In this document: one piece after another, positions 1 to 64,000 of the stretch
Layout of the letters: each line of letters starts with the position of its first letter
Numbering within the stretch: position 1 is the first letter of the stretch
From: Carettochelys insculpta
Lineage: Eukaryota > Chordata > Testudines > Carettochelyidae
Direction: 5' to 3'
Length of the DNA: 64,000 nucleotides
Assembly: GCF_033958435.1 (NCBI RefSeq)
Contig: NC_134139.1
Location: 207,621,501 to 207,685,500 of the forward strand
Translations under genes and position numbers: made by a program
Notes under the pieces: generated by a model
Databases searched by the model: none
Seen by the model: only the letters and a program-made list of their open reading frames with translations
What the model was told of the DNA's origin: nothing

Positions 1-440
1 GCGTTATTGCTTGTGAGGAGGAGCGGCGTGCGGCTGTTGACCAAAGTGCCATTTTCTGTGGACTTCCAGTTGACAGAAAGCCTTGGGAATTTGGGAGCTC
101 CCCGGTTTTGTGGACAAAATGCCCCTTTTGCCGACAAAACCCTCTAGTCTAGACTTAGCCTAGTAGCTGAGGCTACGTCTACGCTAGAAGCATCTCTCAA
201 GAGTGCTTAGTGTCGCAAGAGACGTACCGCCAAATCTTCTGTCGACAGATCGTGTCTACGCGTAAAAGCGGATGGATCCTTTGATCCGCTCCGTGGCCAA
301 ACAAAGTCCTCCGGAGAGTCTACGCGGACGGCTTTCTGTTGCCAATTTCTGTTGACAAAAGGCACGTTGGTTGTGGACAACCTGCGAGTTTTGTAGCCCA
401 AACCCTAGCGGTGTCTCCAAAAGTCTCTGGTGTAGCCCTT
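1..440. mobile_element. Inverted-repeat element remnants (GTTGACAAAA type), right part, unit 1
   Basis: The left element is cut by the window edge; it ends CTCTAGTCTAGACTTAGCC at 147. The second begins GGCTACGTCTACGCTAGAAG near 172 and ends with GTGTAGCCCTT at 440, an imperfect inverted match to its start. Internal GTTGACAAAA/GTCGACAG words recur. Confidence 0.55.
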
Positions 441-494
441 GGCGGCCAGCAAGTGGAGTGCCCCGGTTTTAGCCGCGGGGCTGGGGCTGTTGAA

Positions 495-1429
495 CATAGA
501 ACCAGAGAATCCTAGACTACTAGGACTGGAAGGGACCTCGAGAGGTCATCGAGTCCAGCCCCCTGCCCCAATGGCAGGACCAAGTACTATCTAAACCATC
601 GCTGAGAGACATCTATCTTACCTGTTCTTAAATATCTCCAGTGATGGGGATTCCACAACCTCCCTTGGCAATTTAGTCCACTGTTTGACCGCCCTGACAG
701 TTAGGAACTTTTTCCTAATGTCCAATCCACACCTGCCTTGCTGCAGTTTTAGCCCGTTGCCTCTTGTTCTATCCTCAGAGGCCAAGAAGAACAAGTTTTC
801 TCCTTCTTCCTTATGACTCCCTTTTAGATACCTGAAAACCGCTATCATGTCTCCCTTCAATCGTCTCTTTTCCAAACTAAACAAGCCCAATTGTTTCAAC
901 CTTTTTTCATAGGTCACATTCTCGAGACCTTGAATCATTCTTGTCGCTCTTCTCTGGACCCTCTCTAGTTTCCGCACATCTTTTTTGAACTGCGGTGACC
1001 ACAACTGGACACAATCCTCCAGCTGAGGCCTAACCAGCCCAGAATAGAGTGAAAGAATAACTTCTCTTGTCTTGTTCACAACGCACTTGTTAATGCGTCC
1101 TAGAATCATGTTGGCTTTTTTTTGCAACGGCATCACACTGTTGACTCATATTTAGCTTGTGGTCCACGATAATCCCTAGATCCTCTTCTGCTGGAGTCGT
1201 TCCTAGACAGCCTCTCCCCATTCTGTATGTGTGAAACGGATTGTTCCTTCCCAAGTGGAGCACTTTGCATTTGTCCTTATTAAACTTCATCCTCTTTACC
1301 TCAGACTATTTGTCCAATTTATCCAGATCATTTGGAATGACGACCCTCTCCTCCAAAGCAGTTGCAACCCCTCCCAACTTGGGATCATCTGCAAACTTAA
1401 GAAGCGTCCTTTTTATGCCAAGATCTAAA
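495..1429 (-). mobile_element. CR1 LINE 3' fragment (RT C-terminal half to 3' end), unit 1
   Basis: On the minus strand the translation carries CR1 reverse-transcriptase landmarks in order: KFADDPKLGG (the FADD catalytic box) near 1395-1365, MKFNKDKCKVLHLGRNN from 1290, [16 protein letters not shown], then [17 protein letters not shown] and [18 protein letters not shown] shift of frame in the T8 run near 1114-1121 separates the LHLGRNN part (1090-1290) from the tail (618-1136), so the ORF is broken. The tail ends with an early stop near 618 that most other units lack. The element's 3' end at 495-530 shows the imperfect 8-bp repeats typical of CR1 (minus strand GATTCTAG-like, then GCTTCTAT). 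It is 5' truncated at 1429. Dead copy. Confidence 0.93.
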
Positions 1430-2690
1430 CATCTTCATTGATGACGCGGAGAATGGACTGGATGATTCCAAGTAGGCGGAGAGGTAGTTACGCTGGCTGA
1501 CAGCGGTGAGGTGCAGAGTGTCCTCGGCCAATTGGAGCAGTGGGTCAATCGGAATCTGCTGAGGTGGAAGAAGGTCAAGGGCAGAGTCCTGCACTTGGGA
1601 GGGAGGAATTGCAAGCATTGTTAGAGGCTGGGAAGTGACTGGCTAAGTTGCAGTGCAGCCAAAATGGAGCTGGGGCTGAGGGGGGCTGAGAAGCTGGCCA
1701 TGAGCCAAGAGAGTGCCCCCGTATCCAAGGAGGCGCAAGACATATTGGGGTGCATTAGGAGGAGCTTTGCCAGCAGATGGGGGAAGTGATTCTTCTCCTC
1801 TACTCGGCACTGCTGAGGCTGCCTCTGGGCTGGAGGACGACAGGGGGCTTGAAGTCCCGTTGCCGTCTGTGGAGTTGTGTTCCCGCCTAATGCGGGTGGC
1901 AGAGCAGCGCCAGCAGCTGCTTGAGCTGCAGCAGCTCCAAAGGGCTGCTGAAAGGCCTGGCGGGGGATGTCCAGCAGCAGGAGCAGGCACTGAGGAAGGA
2001 TCCGTTTTTGCATAGCTACGGAATGGGAAGTGACCGTCTGGGGAGGAGCGCTCCGAAAGGGATGGAGGCTGGTAGTGGAGTCCAAGCTGAAGAGGAATCA
2101 CCCCAGTGTGGCACTGATTCTAAAAAAACCCATAGCGTCCTGGGCTTTATTAAGAGCAGCATTGCGAGCGAGACTGGAGCGGTCAATCTTTTGTTGTGCT
2201 CTGTGCTGATGAGGCCTCAAGTGGAGTGTCCGGTTCTGGGGGCCACATGTTAGGAGAGATCTGGACAAATTGGAAGAAGTCCAAAGAAGACGAATAAAAA
2301 TGATTAAAAATCCAGAGAACGTGACCTATGAGGGTGGGAAAAGTCTGATTGTTTAGTCTGGAAAAGAGAGGGCTGGCAAGGGACACGATGAGAGCGTTCA
2401 CGTAGCTACAAGGGTGATCCTAGGTGGAGGAGGAGGAAACTTCTTCTCCTTGGCCGCTGAGGCTAGAAGAGGCAATGGGCTGAAATTGATGCAAGGGAGC
2501 TTTCGGTTGGGCATTAGGGAAAACTTCCTTCCTGTCAGGGTGGTTAAACGCTGGAGTCAATTGCCTGGGGAGGTTGTGGAATCCCATCGCTGGAGATTTT
2601 GAAGAGCAGGTTAGAAAAGCACCTCTCAGGGCAGGTGTAACTGGTGCTTGGTGGTGCCCTGAGTACAGGGTGTGATATGAGGGGGTTTCC
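1430..2690 (+). mobile_element. Older CR1 LINE remnant(s) on plus strand with internal non-CR1 insert, unit 1
   Basis: Two decayed CR1 pieces lie in the same direction. The first (1430-1826) reads IFIDDAENGLDDSK, then VLHLGG, and ends with DILGCIRRSFASRWG and LLLYSALLRL. The second (about 2111-2690) again has the CR1 signature, now VLGFIKSSIASETG and LLLCSVLMRPQ, followed by ENVTYEG, a SLEKRG-like frame, VRVVKRWSQLPGEVVES and LEILKSRLEKHL. Because the same protein segment occurs twice, this is either two insertions or a duplication. Between them, 1827-2110 is GC/CAG-rich and not CR1-like. Frames shift several times. The 3' limit near 2690 is approximate; no terminal 8-bp repeats are visible. 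Confidence 0.85.
1827..2110 (+). other. GC/CAG-rich non-CR1 segment inside the plus-strand CR1 (representative, unit 1)
   Basis: The segment contains GCCAGCAGCTGCTTGAGCTG and CCAGCAGCAGGAGC. The frame 1713-2015 reads EDDRGLEVPLPSVELCSRLM, then AEQRQQLLELQQLQRAAERPG, a Q/L-rich stretch that would form a short coiled coil. It lacks CR1 landmarks. The frame stays open in most units (equivalents start at 6308, 10912, 15517, 20112, 24717, 29322, 38529, 43133, 47737, 52342 and 61541), but units are too similar for that to prove coding. Possible sources are a captured exon or another retroelement's ORF; I cannot name it. Confidence 0.5.
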
Positions 2691-3848
2691 AGGCACAGCT
2701 AGAGAAATCTACCCAGGGGAGGTTGACTTAAAATCAAGCTACTTTCAGCCCCAGGCTGGGATTTCCTTTTCACTAAGGCAAATGCAATCAGCCACAAAAG
2801 TAGCCCTGCCAGCTCCAGCGGCCAGCCAGGTGCCAAATAAGTAAACCCCCACACTTCTCAGCTGCTCCAGCAGCCCAGACCAAACAAGCCCAACTCAGGC
2901 GAAAGGTTTTGAAACCTATTTCACCCAAGGGCAGACGGATTCTTCTAAGCCCGAAGGGCCCGGCCGCAGTCTCAAGTCACTTCATACTTGGATCTAACCC
3001 AAATCGCCACGTGTGCCAATCCTTCAGATCTAAGAGCTAAAGGTTTAGGAATACAAAAGAAAGAAGAGGTTTGGAGAGAAAAATGGTGAAAGCAATACTT
3101 GACATCCGTCCATTAGGGCTATTGATGCCGGCCAGCGGTGTTCTTTGCTGATTCTTGAAAGTCTCTGAAAGTCCACCCCATAAGGGAAACGATTTCAGGC
3201 TCCGTATCTTTGCTTCCTGGAGAAGTGGAGATCCGGCGAGCTGAAGTCAGCCTGCTCGAAAACGGATCCCTGGAAACAGGACCGAGACCAAAGTATCAAG
3301 GTGAAATAGAAGATGGATGCTGCTAGGTCTACCTCCTGGAAGTGTCTTGTGTCCAGGCAGTAAAACCTTTCTCCTTGTCATCAAGCCCCTGAGGGTCCTA
3401 AAGTCACCAGCCCCAGGTAGGCTGTTGCGGCCAAGTGGCAATGGATGACTTCCAAGAGACAGACTCAGTTCCCTCAAAGGGTATTGTCCTTTGTCTCAAT
3501 CAAGTGCCCTGGCGTGGGTGGCAATCACCCCTCCCGTTGTGTACTTTTGGCTCGCAATATTCCGAAGACAACTAGAGAGCTGAAAATCTATGAAGTTGAC
3601 CCACAAACATGGCACAGACCTATAAGTAGCATCCCTAGATTCAGGGCATCCTCAGCTATCATGAGACACATCCCAGGGGCCCCCAGCACAATATTTGGGG
3701 CCAACAGCTACACTGGGCACATTAGATGGCTTCCGCAGCAATAGGAAAATGCAATCGGGTGACACAGGGGACTGGCTCAGAGGAGCTGTCAAGGTTCCTT
3801 CCAAATCTAGACGACCACGGCATGGCTTCAGATGGCTGGGTGAGCAGA
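2691..3848. other. Intergenic spacer between CR1 remnants and U1 promoter (representative, unit 1)
   Basis: No gene is supported here. Landmarks are GCCACGTGTGCC near 3006, an A/G-rich stretch with AGAAAGAAGAGG near 3058, and a GAAAGTCTCTGAAAGTCC direct repeat near 3158-3176. A 99-codon frame (3445-3744) is open in every unit without recognisable homology. Equivalent spacers in the other units are 7286-8443, 11890-13047, 16495-17652, 21090-22247, 25695-26851, 30300-31456, 34903-36060, 39507-40663, 44111-45267, 48715-49872, 53320-54477, 57914-59071 and 62519-63676. It may contain unidentified old repeats. Confidence 0.6.
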
Positions 3849-4061: not shown

Positions 4062-4225
4062 ATACTTACCTGGCAGGGAAAATACCATGATCTGGAAGGT
4101 GGTTTTTCCAGGGTGAGGCTTCTCCATTGCACTGTGGTTGTTGCTGACCCCTGTGATTTCCCCCAAGGGGGAAACTCAACTGCATAATTTGTGGTAGTGG
4201 GGGACTGCATTTGTGCTTTCCCCTG
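4062..4225 (+). ncRNA. RNU1: U1 snRNA-like gene, copy 1 (164 nt)
   Basis: U1 snRNA base-pairs with 5' splice sites and nucleates the U1 snRNP. The copy is 164 nt, exactly the length of human U1. It starts ATACTTACCTGG, the 5' splice-site-pairing end, and ends CTTTCCCCTG. The Sm site AATTTGTGG begins at position 125, as in human. Stem-loop I spans positions 16-48, and stem-loop II keeps the ATTGCAC heptamer of the U1A-binding loop. Differences from human U1 include U32 and G33 in the stem-loop I loop (human A32, C33), a one-base insertion after position 77, and a reshaped stem-loop III. This copy alone has A18 paired with U46 where the others have G18-C46. The stem-loop IV tetraloop is UUUG. 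The promoter and 3' box are at the standard distances. It may be a functional variant U1 or a structured pseudogene; identity as U1-derived is not in doubt. Confidence 0.95.
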
Positions 4226-8656: not shown

Positions 8657-8820
8657 ATACTTACCTGGCAGGTGAAATACCATGATTGGGAAGGTGGTTT
8701 TCCCAGGGTGAGGCTTTTCCATTGCATTGTGGTTGTTGCTGACCCCTGTGACTTCCCCCAAGGGGAAAACTCAACTGCATAATTTGTGGCAGTGGGGGAC
8801 TGCATTTGTGCTTTCCCCTG
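8657..8820 (+). ncRNA. RNU1: U1 snRNA-like gene, copy 2 (most diverged)
   Basis: 164 nt with an intact 5' end. Private changes accumulate here. G17 to U leaves U17 opposite C47 in stem I. Loop I reads GATTGGGAAG, so U31, G32 and G33. C71 to U changes the last base of the U1A heptamer. There is a C in the stem III T run (GACTTCC), C134 follows the Sm site, and the tetraloop is UUUG. This pattern looks more like loss of function than compensated change. Confidence 0.93.
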
Positions 8821-13260: not shown

Positions 13261-13424
13261 ATACTTACCTGGCAGGGGAAATACCATGATCTGGAAGGTG
13301 GTTTTCCCAGGGTGAGGCTTCTCCATTGCACTGTGGTTGTTGCTGACCCCTGTGATTTCCCCCAAGGGGAAAACTCAACTGCATAATTTGTGGTAGTGGG
13401 GGACTGCATTGGTGCTTTCCCCTG
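13261..13424 (+). ncRNA. RNU1: U1 snRNA-like gene, copy 3
   Basis: 164 nt, T32/G33 loop I, stem III 3' arm GGGGAAAA. The stem IV tetraloop is UUGG instead of UUCG. The Sm core is intact. Its PSE is the only one with a T in place of A in CACCCTATG. Confidence 0.95.
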
Positions 13425-17865: not shown

Positions 17866-18029
17866 ATACTTACCTGGCAGGGGAAATACCATGATCTGGA
17901 AGGTGGTTTTCCCAGGGTGAGGCTTCTTCATTGCACTGTGGTTGTTGCTGACCCCTGTGATTTCCCCCAAGGGGGAAACTCAACTGCATAATTTGTGATA
18001 GTGGGGGACTGCATTCATGCTTTCCCCTG
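17866..18029 (+). ncRNA. RNU1: U1 snRNA-like gene, copy 4
   Basis: 164 nt, T32/G33 loop I. U63 makes a U-G wobble beside the U1A loop. The Sm-site flank reads AATTTGTGA (G133 to A). The stem IV loop is UUCA, one more loss of a CpG. Confidence 0.94.
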
Positions 18030-22460: not shown

Positions 22461-22624
22461 ATACTTACCTGGCAGGGGAAATACCATGATCTGGAAGGTG
22501 GTTTTCCCAGGGTGAGGCTTCTCCATTGCACTGTGGTTGTTGCTGACCCCTGTGATTTCCCCCAAGGGGAAAACTCAACTGCATAATTTGTGGTAGTGGG
22601 GGACTGCATTCGTGCTTTCCCCTG
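22461..22624 (+). ncRNA. RNU1: U1 snRNA-like gene, copy 5
   Basis: 164 nt, T32/G33 loop I, stem II with CC/GG closing pairs, Sm site AATTTGTGG, UUCG tetraloop in stem IV. It is close to the array consensus of the T32 class. Confidence 0.95.
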
Positions 22625-27064: not shown

Positions 27065-27228
27065 ATACTTACCTGGCAGGGGAAATACCATGATCTGGAA
27101 GGTGGTTTTCCCAGGGTGAGGCTTCTTCATTGCACTGTGGTTGTTGCTGACCCCTGTGATTTCCCCCAAGGGGGAAACTCAACTGCATAATTTGTGATAG
27201 TGGGGGACTGCATTCGTGCTTTCTCCTG
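27065..27228 (+). ncRNA. RNU1: U1 snRNA-like gene, copy 6
   Basis: 164 nt, T32/G33 loop I, U63, and A133 after the Sm core as in copy 4. C160 to U in the 3' arm of stem IV (CTTTCTCCTG) converts a G-C pair to G-U. Confidence 0.94.
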
Positions 27229-30299: not shown

Positions 30300-31456
30300 A
30301 GGCACAGCTAGAGAAATCTACCCAGGGGAGGTTGACTTAAAATCAAGCTACTTTCAGCCCCAGGCTGAGATATCCTTTTCACAAAGGAAATGCAATCAGC
30401 CACAAAAGTAGCCCTGCCAGCTCCAGCGGCCAGCCAGGTGCCAAATAAGTAAACACACACACTTCTCAGCTGCTCCAGCAGCCCAGACCAAACAAGCCTA
30501 ACTCAGGCGAAAGGTTTTCAAACCTATTTCACCGAAGGGCAGACGGATTCTTCTAAGCCCGAAGGGCCCGGCCGCAGTCTCAAGTCACTTCATATTTGGA
30601 TCTAACCCAAATCGCCACGTGTGCCAGTCCTTCAGATCTAAGAGCTAAAGGTTTAGAAATACAAAAGAAAGAAGAGGTTTGGAGAGAAAAATGGTGAAAG
30701 CAATACTTGACATCCGTCCATTAGGGCTATTGATGCCGGCCAGCGGTGTTCTTTGCTGATTCTTGAAAGTCTCTGAAAGTCCACCCCATAAGGGAAACGA
30801 TTTCAGGCTCCATATCTTTGCTTCCTGCAGAAGTGGAGATCCGGCGAGCTGAAGTCAGCCTGCTAGAAAACGGATCCCTGGAAACAGGACCCAGACCAAA
30901 GTATCAAGATGAAATAGAAGATGGATGCTGCTAGGTCTACCTCCTGGAAGTGTCTTGTGTCCAGGCAGTAAAACCTTTCTCCTTGTCATCAAGCCCCTGA
31001 GGGTCCTAAAGTCACCAGCCCCAGGTAGGCTGTTGCGGCCAAGTGGCAATGGATGACTTCCAAGAGACAGACTCAGTTCCCTCGAAGGGTATTGTCCTTT
31101 GTCTCAATCAAGTGCCCTGGCGTGGGTGGCAATCACCCCTCCCGTTGTGTACTTTTGGCTCGCAACATTCCGAAGACAACTAGAGAGCTAAAAATCTATG
31201 AAGTTGACCCACAAACATGGCACAGACCTATAAGTAGCATCCCTCGATTCAGGGCATCCTCAGCTATCATGAGACACCTCGCAGGGGCCGCCAGTACAAT
31301 ATTTGAGACCAACAGCTACACTGGGCACATCAGATGGCTTCCGCAGCAATAGGAAAATGCAATCGGGTGACACAGGGGACTGGCCCAGAGGAGCTGTCAA
31401 GGTTCCTTCCAAATCTAGACGACCACGGCATGGCTTCAGATGGCTGGGTGAGCAGA

Positions 31457-31478
31457 GCATTGTGGGAGAGGGGGCAGG
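31457..31478 (+). promoter_or_regulatory. U1 distal element, copy 7
   Basis: Same ZNF143-type core and G-rich box at -213. Confidence 0.75.
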
Positions 31479-31608: not shown

Positions 31609-31628
31609 CCACCCTATGCTGAGAGCCT
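31609..31628 (+). promoter_or_regulatory. U1 PSE, copy 7
   Basis: GAGAG form of the element at -61 to -42. Confidence 0.65.
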
Positions 31629-31669: not shown

Positions 31670-31833
31670 ATACTTACCTGGCAGGGGAAATACCATGATC
31701 GGGAAGGTGGTTTTCCCAGGGTGAGGCTTCTCCATTGCACTGTGGTTGTTGCTGACCCCTGTGATTTCCCCCAAGGGGAAAACTCAACTGCATAATTTGT
31801 GGTAGTGGGGGACTGCATTCGTGCTTTCCCCTG
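31670..31833 (+). ncRNA. RNU1: U1 snRNA-like gene, copy 7
   Basis: 164 nt, G32/G33 loop I (GATCGGGAAG), stem III 3' arm GGGGAAAA, intact Sm site and UUCG tetraloop. By eye it is identical to copies 8, 9 and 10. Confidence 0.95.
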
Positions 31834-31840: not shown

Positions 31841-31856
31841 GTATGACAAAAATAGA
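31841..31856 (+). terminator. snRNA 3' box, copy 7
   Basis: GTATGACAAAAATAGA at the same spacing. Confidence 0.75.
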
Positions 31857-32707: not shown

Positions 32708-33641
32708 CATAGAAGCAGAGAATCCTAGAATCCTAGGACTGGAAGGGACCTCGAGAGGCCATCGAGTCCAGCCCCCTCCCCCAATGGCAGGACCAAGTAC
32801 TATCTAAACCATCGCTGAGAGACATCTATCTAACCTGTTCTTAAATATCTCCAGTGATGGGGATTCCACAACCTCCCTTGGCAATTTAGTCCACTGATTG
32901 ACCGCCCTGACAGTTAGGAACTTTTTCCTAATGTCCAACCTAAACCTCCCTTGCTGCAGTTTAAGCCCGTTGCCTCTTGTTCTATCCTCAGAGGCCAAGA
33001 AGAACAAGTTTTCTCCTTCTTCCTTATGACTCCCTTTTAGATACCTGAAAACCGCTATCATGTCTCCCTTCAATCGTCTCTTTTCCAAACTAAACAAGCC
33101 CAATTGTTTCAACCTTTTTCATAGGTCACATTCTCGAGACCTTGAATCATTCTTGTCGCTCTTTTCTGGACCCTCTCTAGTTTCCGCACATCTTTTTTGA
33201 ACTGCGGTGCCCAGAACTGGACACAATCCTCCAGCTGAGGCCTAACCAGCGCAGAGTAGAGCGAAAGAATGACTTCTCTTGTCTTCTTCACAACACACTT
33301 GTTCATGCGTCCCAGATTCATGTTGGCTTTTTTTTGCAAAGGCATCACACTGTTGACTCATATTTAGCTTGTGGTCCACGATAATCCCTAGCTCCTGTTC
33401 TGCTGGAGTCCTTCCTAGACAGCCTCTCCCCATTCTGTATGTGTGAAACGGATTGTTCCTTCCCAAGTGGAGCACTTTGCATTTGTCCTTATTAAACTTC
33501 ATCCTCTTTACCTCAGACTATTTGTCCAATTTATCCAGATCATTTGGAATGACGACCCTCTCCTCCAAAGCAGTTGCAACCCCTCCCAACTTGGGATAAT
33601 CTGCAAACTTAAGAAGCGTCCTTTTTATGCCAAGATCTAAA
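32708..33641 (-). mobile_element. CR1 LINE 3' fragment, unit 8
   Basis: Same one-base T-run deletion as unit 3 (frames 32804-33112 and 33109-33348). The conceptual frame from 33502 runs longer (86 codons) because one stop is lost. Confidence 0.93.
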
Positions 33642-34902
33642 CATCTTCATTGATGACGCGGAGAATGGACTGGATGATTCCAAGTAGGCGGAGAGGTAGT
33701 TACGCTGGCTGACAGCGGTGAGGTACAGAGTGTCCTCGGCCAATTGGAGCAGTGGGTCAATCGGAATCTGCTGAGGTGGAAGAAGGTCAAGGGCAGAGTC
33801 GTGCACTTGGGAGGGAGGAATTGCAAGCATTGTTAGAGGCTGGGAAGTGACTGGCTAAGTTGCAGTGCAGCCAAAATAGAGCTGGGGCTGAGGGGGGCTG
33901 AGAAGCTGGCCATGAGCCAAGAGAGTACCCCCGTATCCAAGGAGGCGCAAGACATATTGGGGTGCATTAGGAGGAGCTTTGCCAGCAGATGGGGGAAGTG
34001 ATTCTTCTCCTCTACTCGGCACTGCTGAGGCTGCCTCTGGGCTGGAGGACGACAGGGGGCTTGAAGTCCCGTTGCCGTCTGTGGAGTTGTGTTCCTGCCT
34101 CATGCGGGTGGCAGAGCAGCGCCAGCAGCTGCTTGAGCTGCAGCAGCTCCAAAGGGCTGCTAAAAGGCCTGGCGGGGGCTGTCCAGCAGCAGGAGCAGGC
34201 ACTGAGGAAGGATCCGCTTTTGCATAAGTATGGAATGGGAAGTGACCGTCTGGGGAGGAGCGCTCCGAAAGGGATGGAGGCTGGTAGTGGAGTCCAAGCT
34301 GAAGAGGAATCACCCCAGTGTGGCACTGATTCTAAAAAAACCCATAGCGTCCTGGGCTTGATTAAGAGCAGCATTGCGAGCGAGACTGGAGCGGTCAATC
34401 TTTTGTTGTGCTCTGTGCTGATGAGGCCTCAAGCGGAGTGTCCGGTTCTGGGGGCCACGTGTTAGGAGAGATCTGGACAAATTGGAAGAAGTCCAAAGAA
34501 GACGAATAAAAATGATTAAAAATCCAGAGAACGTGACCTATGAGGGTTGGAAAAGTCTGATTGTTTAGTCTGGAAAAGAGAGGGCTGGGAAGGGACACGA
34601 TGAGAGCATTCACGTAGCTACAAGGGTGATCCTAGGTGGAGGAGGAGGAAACTTCTTCTCCTTGGCCGCTGAGGCTAGAAGAGGCAATGGGCTGAAATTG
34701 ACGCAAGGGAGCTTTCGGTTGGGCATTAGGGAAAACTTCCTTCCTGTCAGGGTGGTTAAACGCTGGAGTCAATTGCCCGGGGAGGTTGTGGAATCCCATC
34801 GCTGGAGATTTTGAAGAGCAGGTTAGAAAAGCACCTCTCAGGGCAGGTGTAACTGGTGCTTGGTGGTGCCCTGAGGACAGGGTGTGATATGAGGGGGTTT
34901 CC
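33642..34902 (+). mobile_element. Older CR1 remnants with insert, unit 8
   Basis: Private GAGTACCCCCG near 33925 and GCATAAGTATGG near 34223. Confidence 0.85.
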
Positions 34903-36273: not shown

Positions 36274-36437
36274 ATACTTACCTGGCAGGGGAAATACCAT
36301 GATCGGGAAGGTGGTTTTCCCAGGGTGAGGCTTCTCCATTGCACTGTGGTTGTTGCTGACCCCTGTGATTTCCCCCAAGGGGAAAACTCAACTGCATAAT
36401 TTGTGGTAGTGGGGGACTGCATTCGTGCTTTCCCCTG
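36274..36437 (+). ncRNA. RNU1: U1 snRNA-like gene, copy 8
   Basis: 164 nt; no difference from copy 7 seen. G32/G33 class. Confidence 0.95.
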
Positions 36438-40876: not shown

Positions 40877-41040
40877 ATACTTACCTGGCAGGGGAAATAC
40901 CATGATCGGGAAGGTGGTTTTCCCAGGGTGAGGCTTCTCCATTGCACTGTGGTTGTTGCTGACCCCTGTGATTTCCCCCAAGGGGAAAACTCAACTGCAT
41001 AATTTGTGGTAGTGGGGGACTGCATTCGTGCTTTCCCCTG
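40877..41040 (+). ncRNA. RNU1: U1 snRNA-like gene, copy 9
   Basis: 164 nt; no difference from copy 7 seen. The flanks are shared with copy 10 more than with copy 8. Confidence 0.95.
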
Positions 41041-45480: not shown

Positions 45481-45644
45481 ATACTTACCTGGCAGGGGAA
45501 ATACCATGATCGGGAAGGTGGTTTTCCCAGGGTGAGGCTTCTCCATTGCACTGTGGTTGTTGCTGACCCCTGTGATTTCCCCCAAGGGGAAAACTCAACT
45601 GCATAATTTGTGGTAGTGGGGGACTGCATTCGTGCTTTCCCCTG
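45481..45644 (+). ncRNA. RNU1: U1 snRNA-like gene, copy 10
   Basis: 164 nt; no difference from copy 7 seen. Last of four consecutive identical copies. Confidence 0.95.
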
Positions 45645-50085: not shown

Positions 50086-50249
50086 ATACTTACCTGGCAG
50101 GGGAAATACCATGATCGGGAAGGTGGTTTTCCCAGGGTGAGGCTTCTCCATTGCACTGTGGTTGTTGCTGACCCCTGTGATTTCCCCCAAGGGGGAAACT
50201 CAACTGCATAATTTGTGGTAGTGGGGGACTGCATTCGTGCTTTCCCCTG
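50086..50249 (+). ncRNA. RNU1: U1 snRNA-like gene, copy 11
   Basis: 164 nt, G32/G33 loop I. Differs from copies 7-10 by one base in stem III (GGGGGAAA), which gives a fully self-complementary CCCCC/GGGGG arm. Identical to copy 13. Confidence 0.95.
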
Positions 50250-50494: not shown

Positions 50495-51069
50495 CCCTTG
50501 TCTAGACAAAACAGCCAAGTGGAAAGATAGCAGCTAGGGCTGTCTGGTGTCCTGCAAGCCCTGACTATGGAGAGAGGGCCTGTTGGCACATCCAGAGTAG
50601 CTTCCTGTGGCCAGATGTCTGTGGTCAGCAGCGTTATTGCTTGTGAGGAGGAGCGGCGTGCGGCTGTTGACAAAAGTGCCATTTTCTGTGGACTTCCAGT
50701 TGACAGAAAGCCTTGGGAATTTGGGAGCTCCCCGGTTTTGTGGACAAAATGCCCCTTTTGCCGACAAAACCCTCTAGTCTAGACTTAGCCTAGTAGCTGA
50801 GGCTACGTCTACGCTAGAAGCATCTCTCAAGAGTGCTTAGTGTCGCAAGAGACGTACCGCCAAATCTTTTGTCGACAGATTGTGTCTACGCGTAAGAGCA
50901 GATGGATCCTTTGATCGCTCCGTGGCCAAAAAAAGTCCTCCGGAGCGTCTACACGGACGGCTTTCTGTTGCCAATTTCTGTTGACAAAAGGCACATTGGT
51001 TGTGGACGACCTGCGAGTTTTGTAGCCTAAACCCTAGCGGTGTCTCCAAAAGTCTCTAGCGTAGCCCTT
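50495..51069. mobile_element. MITE-like pair, unit 11/12 junction
   Basis: Subtype-B form; AATCTTTTGTCGAC and GGCACATTGG, repeated at the unit 13/14 junction. Confidence 0.55.
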
Positions 51070-51123
51070 GGTGGGTAGTAAGTGGAGTGCCCCGGTTTTA
51101 GCCGCGGGGCTGGGGCTGTTGAA

Positions 51124-54477: not shown

Positions 54478-54499
54478 GCATTGTGGGAGAGGGGGCAGG
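54478..54499 (+). promoter_or_regulatory. U1 distal element, copy 12
   Basis: Same ZNF143-type core and G-rich box at -213. Confidence 0.75.
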
Positions 54500-54629
54500 C
54501 TGCTGAGTAGGGCCTGAATTTGGTAGCCAGGGCTTTTGTGGAGATGAATGCGAGGCTGGGCCATGGCAGGGAAGCTTGTGGCAGTGGTGGCTGGTGTGGA
54601 TGAGGCCTGTGAGAGGGCCGAGGCCACCT

Positions 54630-54649
54630 CCACCCTATGCTGAGAGCCT
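54630..54649 (+). promoter_or_regulatory. U1 PSE, copy 12
   Basis: GAGAG form of the element at -61 to -42. Confidence 0.65.
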
Positions 54650-54690
54650 GGGGTGCGTGAGGTGGAGCTCAGCGTGGGGGTGAGTCTCTC

Positions 54691-54854
54691 ATACTTACCT
54701 GGCAGGGGAAATACCATGATCTGGAAGGTGGTTTTCCCAGAGTGAGGCTTCTTCATTGCACTCTGGTTGTTGCTGACCCCTGTGGTTTCCCCCAAGGGGG
54801 AAACTCAACTGCATAATTTGTGGTAGTGGGGGACTGCATTCGTGCTTTCCCCTG
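54691..54854 (+). ncRNA. RNU1: U1 snRNA-like gene, copy 12
   Basis: 164 nt, T32/G33 loop I. Private or semi-private changes: G51 to A (CCCAGAGTG), U63, C73 next to the U1A heptamer (CACTCTGG, closer to human CACTCCGG), and G in place of A before the stem III T run (GTGGTTTCC). Shares U63, C73 and GTGG with partial copy 14. Confidence 0.94.
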
Positions 54855-54861
54855 ATACTAA

Positions 54862-54877
54862 GTATAGCAAAAATAGA
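54862..54877 (+). terminator. snRNA 3' box, copy 12
   Basis: GTATAGCAAAAATAGA; subtype-A spelling. Confidence 0.73.
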
Positions 54878-55088
54878 CTAGACTGAATGAGTTGATAGAA
54901 TTGGCTAAAATGTCTTGTTTGAAACTGTTATGGATTGGTTTGTGTATCCAAGTGAGTCTAGACTGCAGTGCTTTTTTTTTCTGAAGGCTTTGTTGTTAGA
55001 AAACTTCTGTCAACAGTTTAGTTTTTTTTTGTGAATGGGAGGGCAAAAGAGATTTTCTCTGTTGATGGTGGGTAGTTAGCCTGCTTGG

Positions 55089-55664
55089 TCCTTGTCTAGA
55101 CAAAACAGCTAAGTGGAAAGATAGCAGCTAGGGCTGTCTGGTGTCCTGCAAGCCCTGACTATGGAGAGAGGGCCTCTTGGCATGTTCTGAGTATCTTCCT
55201 GTGGCCAGATGTCTGTGGACAGCAGCGTTATTGCTTGTGAGGAGGAGCGGCGTGCGGCTGTTGACAAAAGTGCCATTTTCTGTGGACTTCCAGTTGACAG
55301 AAAGCCTTGGGAATTTGGGATCTCCCCCGTTTTGCGGACAAAATGCCCCTTTTGCCAACAAAACCCTCTAGTCTAGACTTAGCCTAGTAGCTGAGGCTAG
55401 GTCTACGCTAGAAGCATCTCTCAAGAGTACTTAGTGTCGCAAGAGACATACCGCCAAATCTTCTGTCGACAGATCGTGTCTACGCGTAAGAGCGGATGGA
55501 TCCTTTGATCCGCTCCGTGGCCAAACAAAGTCCTCCGGAGAGTCTACGCGGACGGCTTTCTGTTGCCAATTTCTGTTGACAAAAGGCACGTTGGTTGTGG
55601 ACAACCTGCGAGTTTTGTAGCCCAAACCCTAGCGGTGTCTCCAAAAGTCTCTGGTGTAGCCCTT
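55089..55664. mobile_element. MITE-like pair, unit 12/13 junction
   Basis: Subtype-A form; private GGGATCTCCCCCG near 55317. Confidence 0.55.
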
Positions 55665-55718
55665 GGCAGCCAGCAAGTGGAGTGCCCCGGTTTTAGCCGC
55701 GGGGCTGGGGCTGTTGAA

Positions 55719-56653
55719 CATAGAAGCAGAGAATCCTAGACTACTAGGAGTGGAAGGGACCTCGAGAGGCCATCGAGTCCAGCCCCCTGCCCCAATGGCA
55801 GGACCAAGTACTGTCTAAACCATCGCTGAGAGACATCTATCTAACCTGTTCTTAAATATATCCAGTGATGGGGATTCCACAACCAACCTTGGCAATTTAG
55901 TCCACTGTTTGACCGCCCTGACAGTTAGGAACTTTTTCCTAATGTCCAATCCACACCTGCCTTTCTGCAGTTTTAGCCCGTTGCCTCTTGTTCTATCCTC
56001 AGAGGCCAAGAAGAACAAGTTTTCTCCTTCTTCCTTATGACTCCCTTTTAGATACCTGAAAACCGCTATCATGTCTCCCTTCAATCGTCTCATTTCCAAA
56101 CTAAACAAGCCCAATTGTTTCAACCTTTTTTCATAGGTCACATTCTCGAGACCTTGAATCATTCTTGTCGCTCTTTTCTGGACCCTCTCTAGTTTCCGCA
56201 CATCTTTTTTGAACTGCGGTGCCCACAACTGGACACAATACTCCAGCTGAGGCCTAACCAGCCCAGAGTAGAGCGAAAGAATAACTTTTCTTGTCTTGTT
56301 CACAACGCACTTGTTAATGCGTCCTAGAATCATGTTGGCTTTTTTTTGCAACGGCATCACACTGTTGACTCATATTTAGCTTGTGGTCCACGATAATCCC
56401 TAGATCCTGTTCTGCTGGAGTCCTTCCTAGACAGCCTCTCCCCATTCTGTATGTGTGAAACGGATTGTTCCTTCCCAAGTGGAGCACTTTGCATTTGTCC
56501 TTATTAAACTTCATCCTGTTTACCTCAGACTATTTGTCCAATTTATCCAGATCATTTGGAATGACGACCCTCTCCTCCAAAGCAGTTGCAACCCCTCCCA
56601 ACTTGGGATCATCTGCAAACTTAAGAAGCGTCCTTTTTATTCCAATATCTAAA
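55719..56653 (-). mobile_element. CR1 LINE 3' fragment, unit 13
   Basis: Subtype A. Tail frame 55815-56360 intact. The junction spelling TTCCAATATC differs from other units. Confidence 0.93.
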
Positions 56654-57913
56654 CATCTTCATTGATGACGCGGAGAATGGACTGGATGATTCCAAGTAGG
56701 CGGAGAGGTAGTTACGCTGGCTGACAGCGGTGAGGTACAGAGTGTCCTCGGCCAATTGGAGCAGTGGGTCAATCGGAATCTGCTGAGGTGGAAGAAGGTC
56801 AAGGGCAGAGTCCTGCACTTGGGAGGGAGGAATTGCAAGCATTGTTAGAGGCTGGGAAGTGACTGGCTAAGTTGCAGTGCAGCCAAAATGGAGCTGGGGC
56901 TGACAGGGGCTGAGAAGCTGGCCATGAGCCAAGAGAGTGCCCCCGTATCCAAGGAGGCGCAAGACATATTGGGGTGCATTAGGAGGAGCTTTGCCAGCAG
57001 ATGGGGAAGTGATTCTTCTCCTCTACTCGGCACTGCTGAGGCTGCCTCTGGGCTGGAGGACGACAGGGGGCTTGAAGTCCCGTTGCCGTCTGTGGAGTTG
57101 TGTTCCTGCCTCATGCGGGTGGCAGAGCAGCGCCAGCAGCTGCTTGAGCTGCAGCAGCTCCAAAGGGCTGCTGAAAGGCCTGGCGGGGGCTGTCCAGCAG
57201 CAGGAGCAGGCACCGAGGAAGGATCCGTTTTTGCATAGCTATGGAATGGGAAGTGACCGTCTGGGGAGGAGCGCTCCGAAAGGGATGGAGGCTGGTAGTG
57301 GAGTCCAAGCTGAAGAGGAATCACCCCAGTGTGGCACTGATTCTAAAAAAACCCATAGCGTCCTGGGCTTGATTAAGAGCAGCATTGCAAGCGAGACTGG
57401 AGCGGTCAATCTTTTGTTGTGCTCTGTGCTGATGAGGCCTCAAGCGGAGTGTCCGGTTCTGGGGGCCACGTGTTAGGAGAGATCTGGACAAATTGGAAGA
57501 AGTCCAAAGAAGACGAATAAAAATGATTAAAAATCCAGAGAACGTGACCTATGAGGGTTGGAAAAGTCTGATTGTTTAGTCTGGAAAAGAGAGGGCTGGG
57601 AAGGGACACGATGAGAGCGTTCACGTAGCTACAAGGGAGATCCTAGGTGGAGGAGGAGGAAACTTCTTCTCCTTGGCCGCTGAGGCTAGAAGAGGCAATG
57701 GGCTGAAATTGACGCAAGGGAGCTTTAGGTTGGGCATTAGGAAAAACTTCCTTCCTGTCAGGGTGGATAAACGCTGGAGTCAATTGCCTGGGGAGGTTGT
57801 GGAATCCCATCGCTGGAGATTTTGAAAAGCAGGTTACAAAAGCACCTCTCAGGGCAGGTGTAACTGGTGCTTGGTGGTGCCCTGAGTACAGGGTGTGATA
57901 TGAGGGGGTTTCC
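56654..57913 (+). mobile_element. Older CR1 remnants with insert, unit 13
   Basis: One-G deletion near 57003 joins the two usual frames, so a 179-codon conceptual frame (56937-57476) appears; this is an accident of the indel. Confidence 0.85.
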
Positions 57914-59071
57914 AGGCACAGCTAGAGAAATCTACCCAGGGGAGGTTGACTTAAAATCAAGCTACTTTCAGCCCCAGGCTGGGATTTCCTTTTCACTAAG
58001 GCAAATGCAATCAGCCACAAAAGTAGCCCTGCCAGCTCCAGCGGCCAGCCAGGTGCCAAATAAGTAAACCCACACACTTCTCAGCTGCTCCAGCAGCCCA
58101 GACCAAACAAGCCCAACTCAGGCGAAAGGTTTTGAAACCTATTTCACCCAAGGGCAGACGGATTCTTCTGGGCCCGAAGGGCCCGGCCGCAGTCTCAAAT
58201 CACTACATACGTGGATCTAACCCAAATCGCCACGTGTGCCAATCCTTCAGATCTAAGAGCTAAAGGTTTAGGAATACAAAAGAAAGAAGAGGTTTGGAGA
58301 GAAAAATGGTGAAAGCAATACTTGACATCCGTCCATTAGGGCTATTGATGCCGGCCAGCGGTGTTCCTTGCTGATTCTTGAAAGTCTCTGAAAGTCCACC
58401 CCATAAGGGAAACGATTTCAGGCTCCATATCTTTGCTTCCTGGAGAAGTGGAGATCCGGCGAGCTGAAGTCAGCCTGCTAGAAAACGGATCCCTGGAAAC
58501 AGGACCCAGACCAAAGTATCAAGATGAAATAGAAGATGGATGCTGCTAGGTCTACCTCCTGGAAGTGTCTTGTGTCCAGGCAGTAAAACCTTTCTCCTTG
58601 TCATCAAGCCCCTGAGGGTCCTAAAGTCACCAGCCCCAGGTAGGCTGTTGCGGCCAAGTGGCAATGGATGACTTCCAAGAGACAGACTCAGTTCCCTCGA
58701 AGGGTATTGTCCTTTGTCTCAATCAAGTGCCCTGGCGTGGGTGGCAATCACCCCTCCCGTTGTGTACTTTTGGCTCGCAATATTCCGCAGACAACTAGAG
58801 AGCTAAAAATCTATGAAGTTGACCCACAAACATGGCACAGACCTATAAGTAGCATCCCTCGATTCAGGGCATCCTCAGCTATCATGAGACACCTCCCAGG
58901 GGCCGCCAGTACAATATTTGAGACCAACAGCTACACTGGGCACATCAGATGGCTTCCGCAGCAATAGGAAAATGCAATCGGGTGACACAGGGGACTGGCC
59001 CAGAGGAGCTGTCAAGGTTCCTTCCAAATCTAGACGACCACGGCATGGCTTCAGATGGCTGGGTGAGCAGA

Positions 59072-59093
59072 GCATTGTGGGAGAGGGGGCAGG
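59072..59093 (+). promoter_or_regulatory. U1 distal element, copy 13
   Basis: Same ZNF143-type core and G-rich box at -213. Confidence 0.75.
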
Positions 59094-59223
59094 CTGCTGA
59101 GTAGGGCCTGAATTTGGTAGCCAGGGCTTTTGTGGAGATGAATGCTAGGCTGGGCCATGGCAGGGAAGCTTGTGGCAGTGGTGGCTGGTGTGGATGAGGC
59201 CTGTGAGAGGGCCGAGGCCACCT

Positions 59224-59243
59224 CCACCCTATGCTGAGAGCCT
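59224..59243 (+). promoter_or_regulatory. U1 PSE, copy 13
   Basis: GAGAG form of the element at -61 to -42. Confidence 0.65.
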
Positions 59244-59284
59244 GGGGTGCGTGAGGTGGAGCTCAGCGTGGGGGTGAGTCTCTC

Positions 59285-59448
59285 ATACTTACCTGGCAGG
59301 GGAAATACCATGATCGGGAAGGTGGTTTTCCCAGGGTGAGGCTTCTCCATTGCACTGTGGTTGTTGCTGACCCCTGTGATTTCCCCCAAGGGGGAAACTC
59401 AACTGCATAATTTGTGGTAGTGGGGGACTGCATTCGTGCTTTCCCCTG
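59285..59448 (+). ncRNA. RNU1: U1 snRNA-like gene, copy 13
   Basis: 164 nt; identical by eye to copy 11 although 9199 bp away with a different-class copy between them. Confidence 0.95.
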
Positions 59449-59455
59449 ATATTAA

Positions 59456-59471
59456 GTATGACAAAAATAGA
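59456..59471 (+). terminator. snRNA 3' box, copy 13
   Basis: GTATGACAAAAATAGA at the same spacing. Confidence 0.75.
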
Positions 59472-59693
59472 CCAGACTGGATGAGTTGATAAAACAGGCT
59501 AGAATGTTTTCTTTACAACTGATATGGATTGGTTTGTGTATCCAAGTGAGTCTATACTGCAATGCTTTTTCTCCTGAAGGCTTTGTTGCAAGGTACTTTG
59601 CAAGAAAACTTCTGTCAACAATTTAGTTTCTTCTTGTGAATGGGAGGAGAAAAGAGATCTTCTCTGTTGATGGTGGGCAGCTGGCCTGCTTGA

Positions 59694-60268
59694 CCCTTGT
59701 CTAGACAAAACAGCCAAGTGGAAAGATAGCAGCTAGGGCTGTCTGGTGTCCTGCAAGCCCTGACTATGGAGAGAGGGCCTGTTGGCACATCCAGAGTAGC
59801 TTCCTGTGGCCAGATGTCTGTGGTCAGCAGCGTTATTGCTTGTGAGGAGGAGCGGCGTGCGGCTGTTGACAAAAGTGCCATTTTCTGTGGACTTCCAGTT
59901 GACAGAAAGCCTTGGGAATTTGGGAGCTCCCCGGTTTTGTGGACAAAATGCCCCTTTTGCCGACAAAACCCTCTAGTCTAGACTTAGCCTAGTAGCTGAG
60001 GCTACGTCTACGCTAGAAGCATCTCTCAAGAGTGCTTAGTGTCGCAAGAGACGTACCGCCAAATCTTTTGTCGACAGATTGTGTCTACGCGTAAGAGCAG
60101 ATGGATCCTTTGATCGCTCCGTGGCCAAAAAAAGTCCTCCGGAGCGTCTACACGGACGGCTTTCTGTTGCCAATTTCTGTTGACAAAAGGCACATTGGTT
60201 GTGGACGACCTGCGAGTTTTGTAGCCTAAACCCTAGCGGTGTCTCCAAAAGTCTCTAGCGTAGCCCTT
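59694..60268. mobile_element. MITE-like pair, unit 13/14 junction
   Basis: Subtype-B form matching the unit 11/12 junction at an offset of 9199 bp. Confidence 0.55.
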
Positions 60269-60322
60269 GGTGGGTAGTAAGTGGAGTGCCCCGGTTTTAG
60301 CCGCGGGGCTGGGGCTGTTGAA

Positions 60323-61257
60323 CATAGAAGCAGAGAATCCTAGAATCCTAGGACTGGAAGGGACCTCGAGAGGCCATCGAGTCCAGCCCCCTGCCCCAAT
60401 GGCAGGACCAAGTACTATCTAAACCATCGCTGAGAGACATCTATCTAACCTGTTCTTAAATATCTCCAGTGATGGGGATTCCACAACCTCCCTTGGCAAT
60501 TTAGTCCACTGATTGACCACCCTGACAGTTAGGAACTTTTTCCTAATGTCCAACCTAAACCTCCCTTGCTGCAGTTTAAGCCCGTTGTCTCTTGTTCTAT
60601 CCTCAGAGGCCAAGAAGAACAAGTTTTCTCCTTCTTCCTTATGACTCCCTTTTAGATACCTGAAAACCGCTATCATGTCTCCCTTCAATCGTCTCTTTTC
60701 CAAACTAAACAAGCCCAATTGTTTCAACCTTTTTTCATAGGTCACATTCTCGAGACCTTGAATCATTCTTGTCGCTCTTTTCTGGACCCTCTCTAGTTTC
60801 CGCACATCTTTTTTGAACTGCGGTGCCCAGAACTGGACACAATCCTCCAGCTGAGGCCTAACCAGCGCAGAGTAGAGCGAAAGAATGACTTCTCTTGTCT
60901 TCTTCACAACACACTTGTTAATGCGTCCCAGATTCATGTTGGCTTTTTTTTGCAAAGGCATCACACTGTTGACTCATATTTAGCTTGTGGTCCACGATAA
61001 TCCCTAGATCCTGTTCTGCTGGAGTCCTTCCTAGACAGCCTCTCCCCATTCTGTATGTGTGAAACGGATTGTTCCTTCCCAAGTGGAGCACTTTGCATTT
61101 GTCCTTATTAAACTTCATCCTCTTTACCTCAGACTATTTGTCCAATTTATCCAGATCATTTGGAATGACGACCCTCTCCTCCAAAGCAGTTGCAACCCCT
61201 CCCAACTTGGGATCATCTCCAAACTTAAGAAGCGTCCTTTTTATGCCAAGATCTAAA
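60323..61257 (-). mobile_element. CR1 LINE 3' fragment, unit 14
   Basis: Tail frame 60419-60964 identical to that of unit 12. Confidence 0.93.
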
Positions 61258-62518
61258 CATCTTCATTGATGACGCGGAGAATGGACTGGATGATTCCAAG
61301 TAGGCGGAGAGGTAGTTACGCTGGCTGACAGCGGTGAGGTGCAGAGTGTCCTCGGCCAATTGGAGCAGTGGGTCAGTCGGAATCTGCTGAGGTGGAAGAA
61401 GGTCAAGGGCAGAGTCGTGCACTTCGGAGGGAGGAATTGCAAGCATTGTTAGAGGCTGGGAAGTGACTGGCTAAGTTGCAGTGCAGCCAAAATGGAGCTG
61501 GGGCTGAGGGGGGCTGAGAAGCTGGCCATGAGCCAAGAGAGTGCCCCCGTATCCAAGGAGGCGCAAGACACATTGGGGTGCATTAGGAGGAGCTTTGCCA
61601 GCAGATGGGGGAAGTGATTCTTCTCCTCTACTCGGCGCTGCTGAGGCTGCCTCTGGGCTGGAGGACGACAGGGGGCTTCAAGTCCCGTTGCCGTCTGTGG
61701 AGTTGTGTTCCCGCCTCATGCGGGTGGCAGAGCAGCGCCAGCAGCTGCTTGAGCTGCAGCAGCTCCAAAGGGCTGCTAAAAGGCCTGGCGGGGGCTGTCC
61801 AGCAGCAGAAGCAGGCACCGAGGAAGGATCCGTTTTTGCATAGCTATGGAATGGGAAGTGACCGTCTGGGGAGGAGCGCTCCGAAAGGGATGGAGGCTGG
61901 TAGTGGAGTCCAAGCTGAAGAGGAATCACCCCAGTGTGGCACTGATTCTAAAAAAACCCATCGCGTCCTGGGCTTTATTAAGAGCAGCATTGCGAGCGAG
62001 ACTGGAGCGGTCAATCTTTTGTTGTGCTCTGTGCTGATGAGGCCCCAAGTGGAGTGTCCGGTTCTGGGGGCCACGTGTTAGGAGAGATCTGGAGAAATTG
62101 GAAGAAGTCCAAAGAAGACGAATAAAAATGATTAAAAATCCAGAGAACGTGACCTATGAGGGTGGGAAAAGTCTGATTGTTTAGTCTGGAAAAGAGAGGG
62201 CTGGGAAGGGACACGATGAGAGCGTTGACGTAGCTACAAGGGTGATCCGAGGTGGAGGAGGAGGAAACTTCTTCTCCTTGGCCGCTGAGGCCAGAAGAGG
62301 CAATGGGCTGAAATTGACGCAAGGGAGCTTTAGGTTGGGAATTAGGGAAAACTTCCTTCCTGTCAGGGTGGATAAACGCTGGAGTCAATTGCCTGGGGAG
62401 GTTGTGAAATCCCATCGCTGGAGATTTTGAAGAGCAGGTTAGAAAAGCACCTCTCAGGGCAGGTGTAACTGGTGCTTGGTTGTGCCCTGAGGACAGGGTG
62501 TGATATGAGGGGGTTTCC
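61258..62518 (+). mobile_element. Older CR1 remnants with insert, unit 14
   Basis: As unit 12, with a private CTTCGGAGG near 61432. Confidence 0.85.
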
Positions 62519-63676
62519 AGGCACAGCTAGAGAAATCTACCCAGGGGAGGTTGACTTAAAATCAAGCTACTTTCAGCCCCAGGCTGGGATTTCCTTTTCA
62601 CTAAGGCAAATGCAATCAGCCACAAAAGTAGCCCTGCCAGCTCCAGCGGCCAGCCAGGTGCCAAATAAGTAAACCCACACACTTCTCAGCTGCTCCAGCA
62701 GCCCAGACCAAACAAGCCCAACTCAGGCGAAAGGTTTTGAAACCTATTTCACCCAAGAGCAGACGGATTCTTCTGGGCCCGAAGGGCCCGGCCGCAGTCT
62801 CAAGTCACTACATATGTGGATCTAACCCAAATCGCCACGTGTGCCAGTCCTTCAGATCTAAGAGCTAAAGGTTTAGGAATACAAAAGAAAGAAGAGGTTT
62901 GGAGAGAAAAATGGTGAAAGCAATACTTGACATCCGTCCATTAGGGCTATTGATGCCGGCCAGCAGTGTTCTTTGCTGATTTTTGAAAGTCTCTGAAAGT
63001 CCACCCCATAAGGGAAACGATTTCAGGCTCCGTATCTTTGCTTCCTGGAGAAGTGGAGATCTGGCGAACTGAAGTCAGCCTGCTCGAAAACGGATCCCTG
63101 GAAACAGGACCCAGACCAGAGTATCAAGGTGAAATACAAGATGGATGCTGCTAGGTCTACCTCCTGGAAGTGTCTTGTGTCCAGGCAGTAAAACCTTTCT
63201 CCTTGTCATCAAGCCCCTGAGGGTCCTAAAGTCACCAGCCCCAGGTAGGCTGTTGCGGCCAAGTGGCAATGGATGACTTCCAAGAGACAGACTCAGTTCC
63301 CTCGAAGGGTATTGTCCTTTGTCTCAATCAAGTGCCCTGGCGTGGGTGGCAATCACCCCTCCCGTTGTGTACTTTTGGCTCGCAATATTCCGAAGAAAAC
63401 TAGAGAGCTGAAAATCTATGAAGTTGACCCACAAACATGGCACAGACCTATAAGTAGCATCCCTAGATTCAGGGCATCCTCAGCTATCATGAGACACCTC
63501 CCATGGGCCACCAGCACAATATTTGGTGCCCACAGCTACACTGGGCACATCAGATGGCTTCCGCAGCAATAGGAAAATGCAATCGGGTGACACAGGGGAC
63601 TGGCCCAGAGGAGCTGTCAAGGTTCCTTCCAAATCTAGACGACCACGGCATGGCTTCAGATGGCTGGGTGAGCAGA

Positions 63677-63698
63677 GCATTGTGGGAGAGGGGGCAGG
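63677..63698 (+). promoter_or_regulatory. U1 distal element, copy 14
   Basis: Same ZNF143-type core and G-rich box at -213; its RNA runs off the window. Confidence 0.75.
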
Positions 63699-63828
63699 CT
63701 GCTGAGTAGGGCCTGAATTTGGTAGCCAGGGCTTTTGTGGAGATGAATGCGAGGCTGGGCCATGGCAGGGAAGCTTGTGGCAGTGGTGGCTGGTGTGGAT
63801 GAGGCCTGTGAGAGGGCCGAGGCCACCT

Positions 63829-63848
63829 CCACCCTATGCTGAGAGCCT
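63829..63848 (+). promoter_or_regulatory. U1 PSE, copy 14
   Basis: GAGAG form of the element at -61 to -42. Confidence 0.65.
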
Positions 63849-63889
63849 GGGGTGCGTGAGGTGGAGCTCAGCGTGGGGGTGAGTCTCTC

Positions 63890-64000
63890 ATACTTACCTG
63901 GCAGGGGAAATACCATGATCTGGAAGGTGGTTTTCCCAGGGTGAGGCTTCTTCATTGCACTCTGGTTGTTGCTGACCCCTGTGGTTTCCCCCAAGGGGAA
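63890..64000 (+). ncRNA. RNU1: U1 snRNA-like gene, copy 14 (first 111 nt; truncated by window)
   Basis: Starts ATACTTACCTGG and stops in stem-loop III at the window edge. T32/G33 loop I, U63 and C73 as in copy 12, but with G51 retained. Confidence 0.93.

What the first reader, a model, noticed from the sequence alone, without database searches (positions are those of the whole stretch)
1..64000. At least 14 U1 snRNA genes in a head-to-tail 4.6-kb array in a sauropsid-type genome
Each unit holds one 164-nt U1-like RNA with distal element, PSE and 3' box in fixed spacing. Most of each unit (CR1 and MITE-like remnants) is transposon-derived, so a U1 locus loaded with transposons was amplified as a block. 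The array continues past both window edges, so the true copy number is larger. I do not recall a described array of this unit type.
Basis: partly seen in the sequence, partly recalled or inferred. Interest (0 to 1): 0.85.

Follow-up and report, generated by a model that had tools for sequence, protein, structure and literature searches.

The report
Tandem array of divergent U1 genes
This stretch of vertebrate-like DNA repeats a 4.6-kb block, each carrying one copy of a U1 splicing-RNA gene; the copies look like an unusual, slowly decaying version of U1 rather than the animal's main supply, and tandem U1 arrays as such are already known.

Summary
Rfam U1 (RF00003) finds 14 of the 14 claimed genes (13 whole, one cut by the window end), all on one strand, starts 4,594-4,605 bases apart. 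A ZNF143/Staf-like site and a 3'-box-like site sit in fixed places; the PSE is weak. A CR1 remnant lies in the unit, and the array runs past both edges. "U1 genes" needs qualifying. The array consensus matches human U1 (recalled) in 148 of 165 columns and has lost 7 of 8 CpGs (6 to TpG/CpA); all 14 copies have a changed U1-70K loop (A32 to T or G). Among 13 copies, U1 is as variable as its surroundings (18/164 sites against 311/4,425), and its variants hit conserved positions as often as random ones (9 against 8.5). Older, array-wide substitutions spared the fold (2 broken pairs against 6.3). Best reading: a once-constrained divergent U1 gene was amplified as a 4.6-kb block, homogenised by exchange, and now decays without visible selection on single copies. 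Expression was not testable, and the source genome could not be searched. New member of a known kind.

The parts
4062..4225 (+). U1 copy 1 (161.1 bits); carries C46T
8657..8820 (+). U1 copy 2, most decayed (142.9 bits; 5 non-pairs in the mapped Rfam structure, 3 in the array consensus)
13261..13424 (+). U1 copy 3 (161.4 bits)
17866..18029 (+). U1 copy 4 (157.6 bits)
22461..22624 (+). U1 copy 5, best score (163.8 bits)
27065..27228 (+). U1 copy 6 (157.1 bits)
31670..31833 (+). U1 copy 7 (163.3 bits); identical in sequence to copies 8, 9, 10
36274..36437 (+). U1 copy 8 (163.3 bits)
40877..41040 (+). U1 copy 9 (163.3 bits)
45481..45644 (+). U1 copy 10 (163.3 bits)
50086..50249 (+). U1 copy 11 (163.1 bits); identical to copy 13
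54691..54854 (+). U1 copy 12 (154.1 bits)
59285..59448 (+). U1 copy 13 (163.1 bits)
63890..64000 (+). U1 copy 14, cut by the window end (94.6 bits, model positions 1-112)
31451..31468 (-). ZNF143/Staf-like distal element of copy 7 (2 mismatches); same site at -219 of all 14 copies
   Evidence: consensus recalled
31609..31625 (+). PSE-like site of copy 7 (5 mismatches; weak, no better than chance)
   Evidence: consensus recalled
31841..31856 (+). 3'-box-like site of copy 7 (1 mismatch)
   Evidence: consensus recalled
32804..33118 (-). CR1-type retrotransposon remnant in unit 7 (104-aa piece)
   Evidence: family name recalled
34561..34882 (+). second piece, inverted to the first and 71-82% complementary to it
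   Evidence: arms I1-I3

Best explanation
A divergent U1 snRNA gene, copied as DNA with its distal element, PSE region and 3' box and with transposon debris beside it, was amplified head to tail as a 4.6-kb block. Unequal exchange and conversion keep the units 96-99.5% alike. The founding gene had evolved under structural constraint (a working U1 isoform), but after amplification single copies gather changes as fast as the spacer. Most or all copies are therefore probably a non-essential variant or pseudogene array; RNA made from them would keep the normal 5'-splice-site pairing end and Sm core but should bind U1-70K less well and may be unstable. Shown: the array, exchange, two-phase change pattern, changed loop. 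Inferred: weaker U1-70K binding, instability, low expression, non-essentiality.
For: U1 is not less variable than the unit: 18/164 against 311/4,425 segregating sites in 13 units (Fisher p 0.063 towards MORE variation; ratio 1.56, rough 95% interval 0.97-2.51), nor than its own 320-base flanks (18/164 against 61/627, p 0.66). 19 within-array variants at 18 sites hit Rfam-conserved positions 9 times (8.5 expected, P(sim<=obs) 0.70) and break pairs 4 times (5.4 expected, P 0.28). 15 substitutions between human U1 (recalled) and the array consensus leave 2 broken pairs (6.3 expected, P 0.005) and hit 2 conserved positions (5.3 expected, P 0.037). 7 of 16 human CpG positions changed against 8 of 148 others (p 9e-5), 6 of the 7 as CpG transitions, as germline methylation would do. 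Loop I is changed in 14 of 14; in the human structure C31 and A32 stack on U1-70K Phe106/Phe148 and its loop 3 embraces C33 and G34 (PMC4383343, passages). PMC10801842 (passages) holds that transcribed variants impaired in Sm assembly, by the Sm motif or the U1-70K site, are likely repressed. Exchange: 6,062 of 18,145 informative site pairs fail the four-gamete test, identity does not fall with distance (rho -0.04, p 0.73), the nearest unit changes along units, and a two-unit block is repeated.
Against: 5' end ATACTTACCTG unchanged in 14 of 14; Sm core ATTTGTG in 13 of 13 whole copies and ATTGCAC of loop II in 12 of 13; Staf site in 14 of 14. Six of the 13 whole copies share just two U1 sequences. 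In PMC10801842 restoring the Sm motif alone rescued 3' processing of U1v15, so an intact Sm core may be enough for stability; in PMC12390936 the loop-I-stem change C25T lowered U1-70K binding only modestly. Low CpG is not special to U1: some spacer stretches are as low, and only 2 of 18 U1 variants are CpG transitions. Immediate flanks differ strongly (14/320 upstream, 47/307 downstream), so the local comparison is noisy. The human sequence is recalled and stands in for the ancestor; the test ignores the two indels and leaves out unmapped pairs, while the array consensus on its own 46-pair map has 3 non-pairs. Selection on a multi-copy array can be weak per copy. The animal's other U1 genes were not seen.
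Confidence: 0.58

Rival explanations
1. A working array of a developmentally used U1 isoform (oocyte or embryo type), as in Xenopus and mouse, with a changed U1-70K loop and intact 5' end.
For: Founder substitutions spared the fold; 5' end, Sm core and Staf site kept; early-stage U1 isoforms are reported for fly, mouse, Xenopus and sea urchin (PMC4291461, passages); human variant U1 genes, long taken for pseudogenes and some with changes in the U1-70K domain, affect stem cells when knocked out (PMC13172311, passages).
Against: No excess conservation of U1 among copies; weak PSE; CpG loss.
Confidence: 0.26
2. The main U1 supply of the animal: an ordinary active U1 array under concerted evolution.
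For: 14 hits far above the gathering score, promoter-like elements in place, exchange between units.
Against: Loop I changed in all 14 copies, 17 of 165 columns differ from human U1, gene body not more conserved than its flanks.
Confidence: 0.12
3. Assembly artefact: one unit repeated falsely by the assembler.
For: Not excludable from sequence alone; no reads were available.
Against: 13 units differ at 329 of 4,589 gap-free columns, with 1-24 private changes each and a 12-base indel shared by three units; a false repeat would give near-identical units.
Confidence: 0.04

Closest known systems
Xenopus U1 arrays
   Same: U1 genes repeated at one chromosome site: BLAST counts of about 20 on X. tropicalis chromosome 1, and 11 and about 35 on X. 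laevis 1L and 1S (PMC10361878, passages); embryo and adult U1 isoforms are known (PMC4291461, passages).
   Different: Unit length and content differ (a 1.8-kb Xenopus unit is recalled, not checked); here expression is untested and loop I is changed.
Human variant U1 genes (RNVU1, name recalled; chromosome 1)
   Same: Divergent U1 copies, some with changes in the U1-70K domain and nearly intact 5' ends (PMC13172311, passages).
   Different: The word 'tandem' does not occur in that paper; no regular short head-to-tail unit is known to me.
Human RNU2 tandem array
   Same: Regular array of snRNA genes, about 15 copies per haploid genome (PMC9138887, passages); concerted evolution of it is the title of papers cited in PMC4291461 (reference list).
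   Different: U2, not U1; active genes.
Fish and insect U1/U2 snDNA clusters
   Same: snRNA genes used as repeated-gene markers in cytogenetics (27 papers holding 'U1 snDNA', listing only).
   Different: Unit-level comparison not made here.

Membership tests
U1 spliceosomal RNA (RF00003) | Covariance-model score above gathering | tested here: met
   14 of 14
U1 spliceosomal RNA (RF00003) | 5'-splice-site pairing end ACUUACCUG | tested here: met
   14 of 14
U1 spliceosomal RNA (RF00003) | Sm site core AUUUGUG | tested here: met
   13 of 13 whole copies
U1 spliceosomal RNA (RF00003) | U1A site AUUGCAC in loop II | tested here: met
   12 of 13 whole copies; copy 2 has C to T
U1 spliceosomal RNA (RF00003) | Conserved A32 in the U1-70K loop (Rfam GAUCAaGAAG) | tested here: not met
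   0 of 14; T or G instead
Functional Pol II snRNA gene | DSE, PSE and 3' box at standard distances | tested here: inconclusive
   Staf-like site and 3' box present; PSE weak
Functional Pol II snRNA gene | Transcribed and assembled into snRNP | not testable with these tools
   no RNA data
Essential snRNA gene array | Gene body less variable than spacer | tested here: not met
   18/164 against 311/4,425; 18/164 against 61/627
Retro-pseudogene | RNA-derived copy without promoter | tested here: not met
   Staf-like site in 14 of 14 and 3'-box-like site in 13 of 13 travel with the RNA

The most novel reading that the evidence does not exclude
An expressed germline or embryonic U1 isoform family whose U1-70K loop has been re-made (A32 lost in every copy, two alternative letters kept), giving a U1 particle that still pairs with 5' splice sites but has altered U1-70K/U1C loading, and that acts as a variant splicing or 3'-end-protection particle or as a titrating decoy.
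Probability: 0.12. Interest if true: 0.65.

Novelty: new member of a known kind. Interest (0 to 1): 0.33.

Why it matters
It is a clear case of an snRNA gene turned into a satellite-like array, with a readable change from constrained to unconstrained evolution. If expressed, it would offer natural U1 variants with a changed U1-70K loop. It also warns that counting U1 model hits can overstate the number of working U1 genes.

Tried and rejected
Retro-pseudogene origin: rejected, since promoter-side and 3'-box-like elements travel with the copies. Other RNAs: one unit (31500-36200) scanned at E<=1 gave U1 only; ARAGORN found no tRNA in the window. TRF cannot see a 4.6-kb period (longest period 500). 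Pfam on 5 pieces picked from the 58 stop-to-stop frames gave two matches below cut-off and no retrotransposon family. Exact 31-base U1 pattern in viral contigs and genome contigs: 0 matches (records of the window's own genome may be left out there). The low variation upstream is not unusual (15% of 220-base windows are as low). Paper searches: 9 answered. Searches listed only 25 of 28,642 and 15 of 44 papers. By title and start of abstract none listed describes a 4.6-kb U1 unit in a reptile or bird; this is weak evidence of absence. Recalled and not checked: human U1 sequence, PSE, octamer, Staf and 3'-box consensus strings, the 1.8-kb Xenopus unit, the names CR1 and RNVU1.
Full report
What is there. 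An Rfam scan of the whole window gives 14 matches, all U1 and all on the + strand. Thirteen are whole (model positions 1-166, 142.9-163.8 bits); the last is cut by the window end. Starts are 4,594-4,605 bases apart. Thirteen whole units align at 95.8-99.5% identity with 329 segregating sites in 4,589 gap-free columns, and partial units at both ends show that the array goes on.

Gene anatomy. A ZNF143/Staf-like site lies at -219 in 14 of 14 copies. A 3'-box-like GTATNNCAAAAATAGA lies 8-23 bases after the RNA in 13 of 13 whole copies (sequences); one other spacing form of the consensus has an equally good match elsewhere in the one unit scanned. A PSE-like stretch at -61 is weak: 4 or 5 mismatches in the four copies scored, reached at 55 places in one unit. 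The consensus strings are recalled. Together these parts indicate that the locus was copied as DNA, not from RNA.

The RNA. The array consensus agrees with human U1 (recalled) in 148 of 165 aligned columns, single copies in 142-149. The first 11 bases are unchanged in 14 of 14, the Sm core ATTTGTG in 13 of 13 whole copies and ATTGCAC of loop II in 12 of 13. Loop I, the U1-70K site, differs in all 14: position 32 is T or G where Rfam has a conserved A, position 33 is G, and copy 2 also has T at 31. In the human crystal structure C31 and A32 stack on Phe106 and Phe148 of U1-70K, and C33 and G34 are sandwiched between Arg191 and Lys138 (PMC4383343, passages). Two T-T non-pairs in the upper stem of loop II and one in stem IV are present in all 13 whole copies on the mapped structure. 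Copy 1 carries C46T, one of the changes reported to cut Sm-core assembly by 40-60% in vitro; but C25T in stem-loop I lowered U1-70K binding only modestly there (PMC12390936, passages).

Two phases of change. The 15 substitutions between human U1 and the array consensus leave 2 broken pairs, as many as human itself shows on that 44-pair map, against 6.3 in base- and CpG-matched random placement (P 0.005), and hit 2 conserved positions against 5.3 (P 0.037). The two indels are ignored in this test. So the founder seems to have evolved as a structured RNA. Within the array, 19 variants at 18 sites hit conserved positions 9 times against 8.5 expected (P 0.70) and break pairs 4 times against 5.4 (P 0.28; base-matched only, 46-pair map). 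U1 has 18 of 164 segregating sites against 311 of 4,425 in the rest (Fisher p 0.063 towards more variation). It is level with its own 320-base flanks (18/164 and 61/627, p 0.66), though the two flanks differ (14/320 and 47/307). No constraint is seen after amplification. The human sequence stands in for the unknown ancestor, linked sites are not independent, and selection per copy can be weak in an array, so this is strong but not final.

CpG loss. The U1 consensus keeps 2 CpG with 28 TpG or CpA (observed/expected 0.18; unit 0.41); some spacer stretches are as low. Of eight CpGs in human U1 one remains in register, six are TpG or CpA and one is GG. CpG positions changed in 7 of 16 cases, others in 8 of 148 (p 9e-5). 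That is what germline methylation does; silence in the germline is an inference.

How the array lives. A third of informative site pairs (6,062 of 18,145) fail the four-gamete test, and identity does not fall with distance (rho -0.04, p 0.73). The nearest relative of a unit changes along its length. A two-unit block is repeated: unit 11 equals unit 13 with 2 differences in 3,454 aligned bases from -349 on, and the start of unit 12 equals unit 14 with 6 in 1,611. Unequal crossing-over with conversion explains this; recurrent mutation may add to the four-gamete count.

Surroundings. A 104-aa piece on the minus strand of unit 7 has 7,977 relatives at E<=0.001 among the 8,000 candidates scored; of the 120 listed, the named ones are birds (Mycteria, Grus, Limosa) and one turtle (Chelydra), a few called RNA-directed DNA polymerase or reverse transcriptase. 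I take it for CR1 (name recalled). A second piece lies inverted 1.5-1.9 kb away. As 13 units differ only by 1-base indels and one 12-base indel, the debris predates amplification. The organism is unknown; nine requests to search the source genome did not complete.

What stability would follow. PMC10801842 (passages) says transcribed U1 variants that assemble Sm poorly, through the Sm motif or the U1-70K site, are likely repressed; the same paper shows that a good Sm motif alone rescued the processing of variant U1v15. These copies have a good Sm core and a changed U1-70K loop, so stability is open, and the instability step is the weakest of my reading.

Verdict. It is a tandem array of a divergent U1 gene, probably decaying. 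U1 tandem repeats are known in Xenopus (PMC10361878, passages), U1 clusters in fishes and insects (listing) and variant U1 genes in human (PMC13172311, passages). It is a new member of a known kind, with one open question worth a test: whether the loop-I-altered U1 is expressed.

Noticed in passing
window 48586-64000 (units 11-14): Recent two-unit (about 9.2 kb) block duplication inside the array: units 11/12 repeated as 13/14, with a breakpoint within about the first 1.1 kb of unit 11 as cut here.
   Followed up: yes
window 31834-32153 and the same place in other units: The stretch just after U1 is the most variable of the unit (47 of 307 sites, with a 12-base indel in units 1, 4 and 12), while the 320 bases upstream vary little (14 of 320).
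   Followed up: partly
U1 position 32 in all 14 copies: No copy has the canonical A; 7 have T and 7 have G, which follows the two unit lineages only in part (units 3 and 5 have T but group with G units), as expected with exchange.
   Followed up: partly
window 32248-32277, 32562-32591: Short direct repeats (CTGTTGACAAAAG...), possibly ends of a DNA transposon remnant.
   Followed up: no
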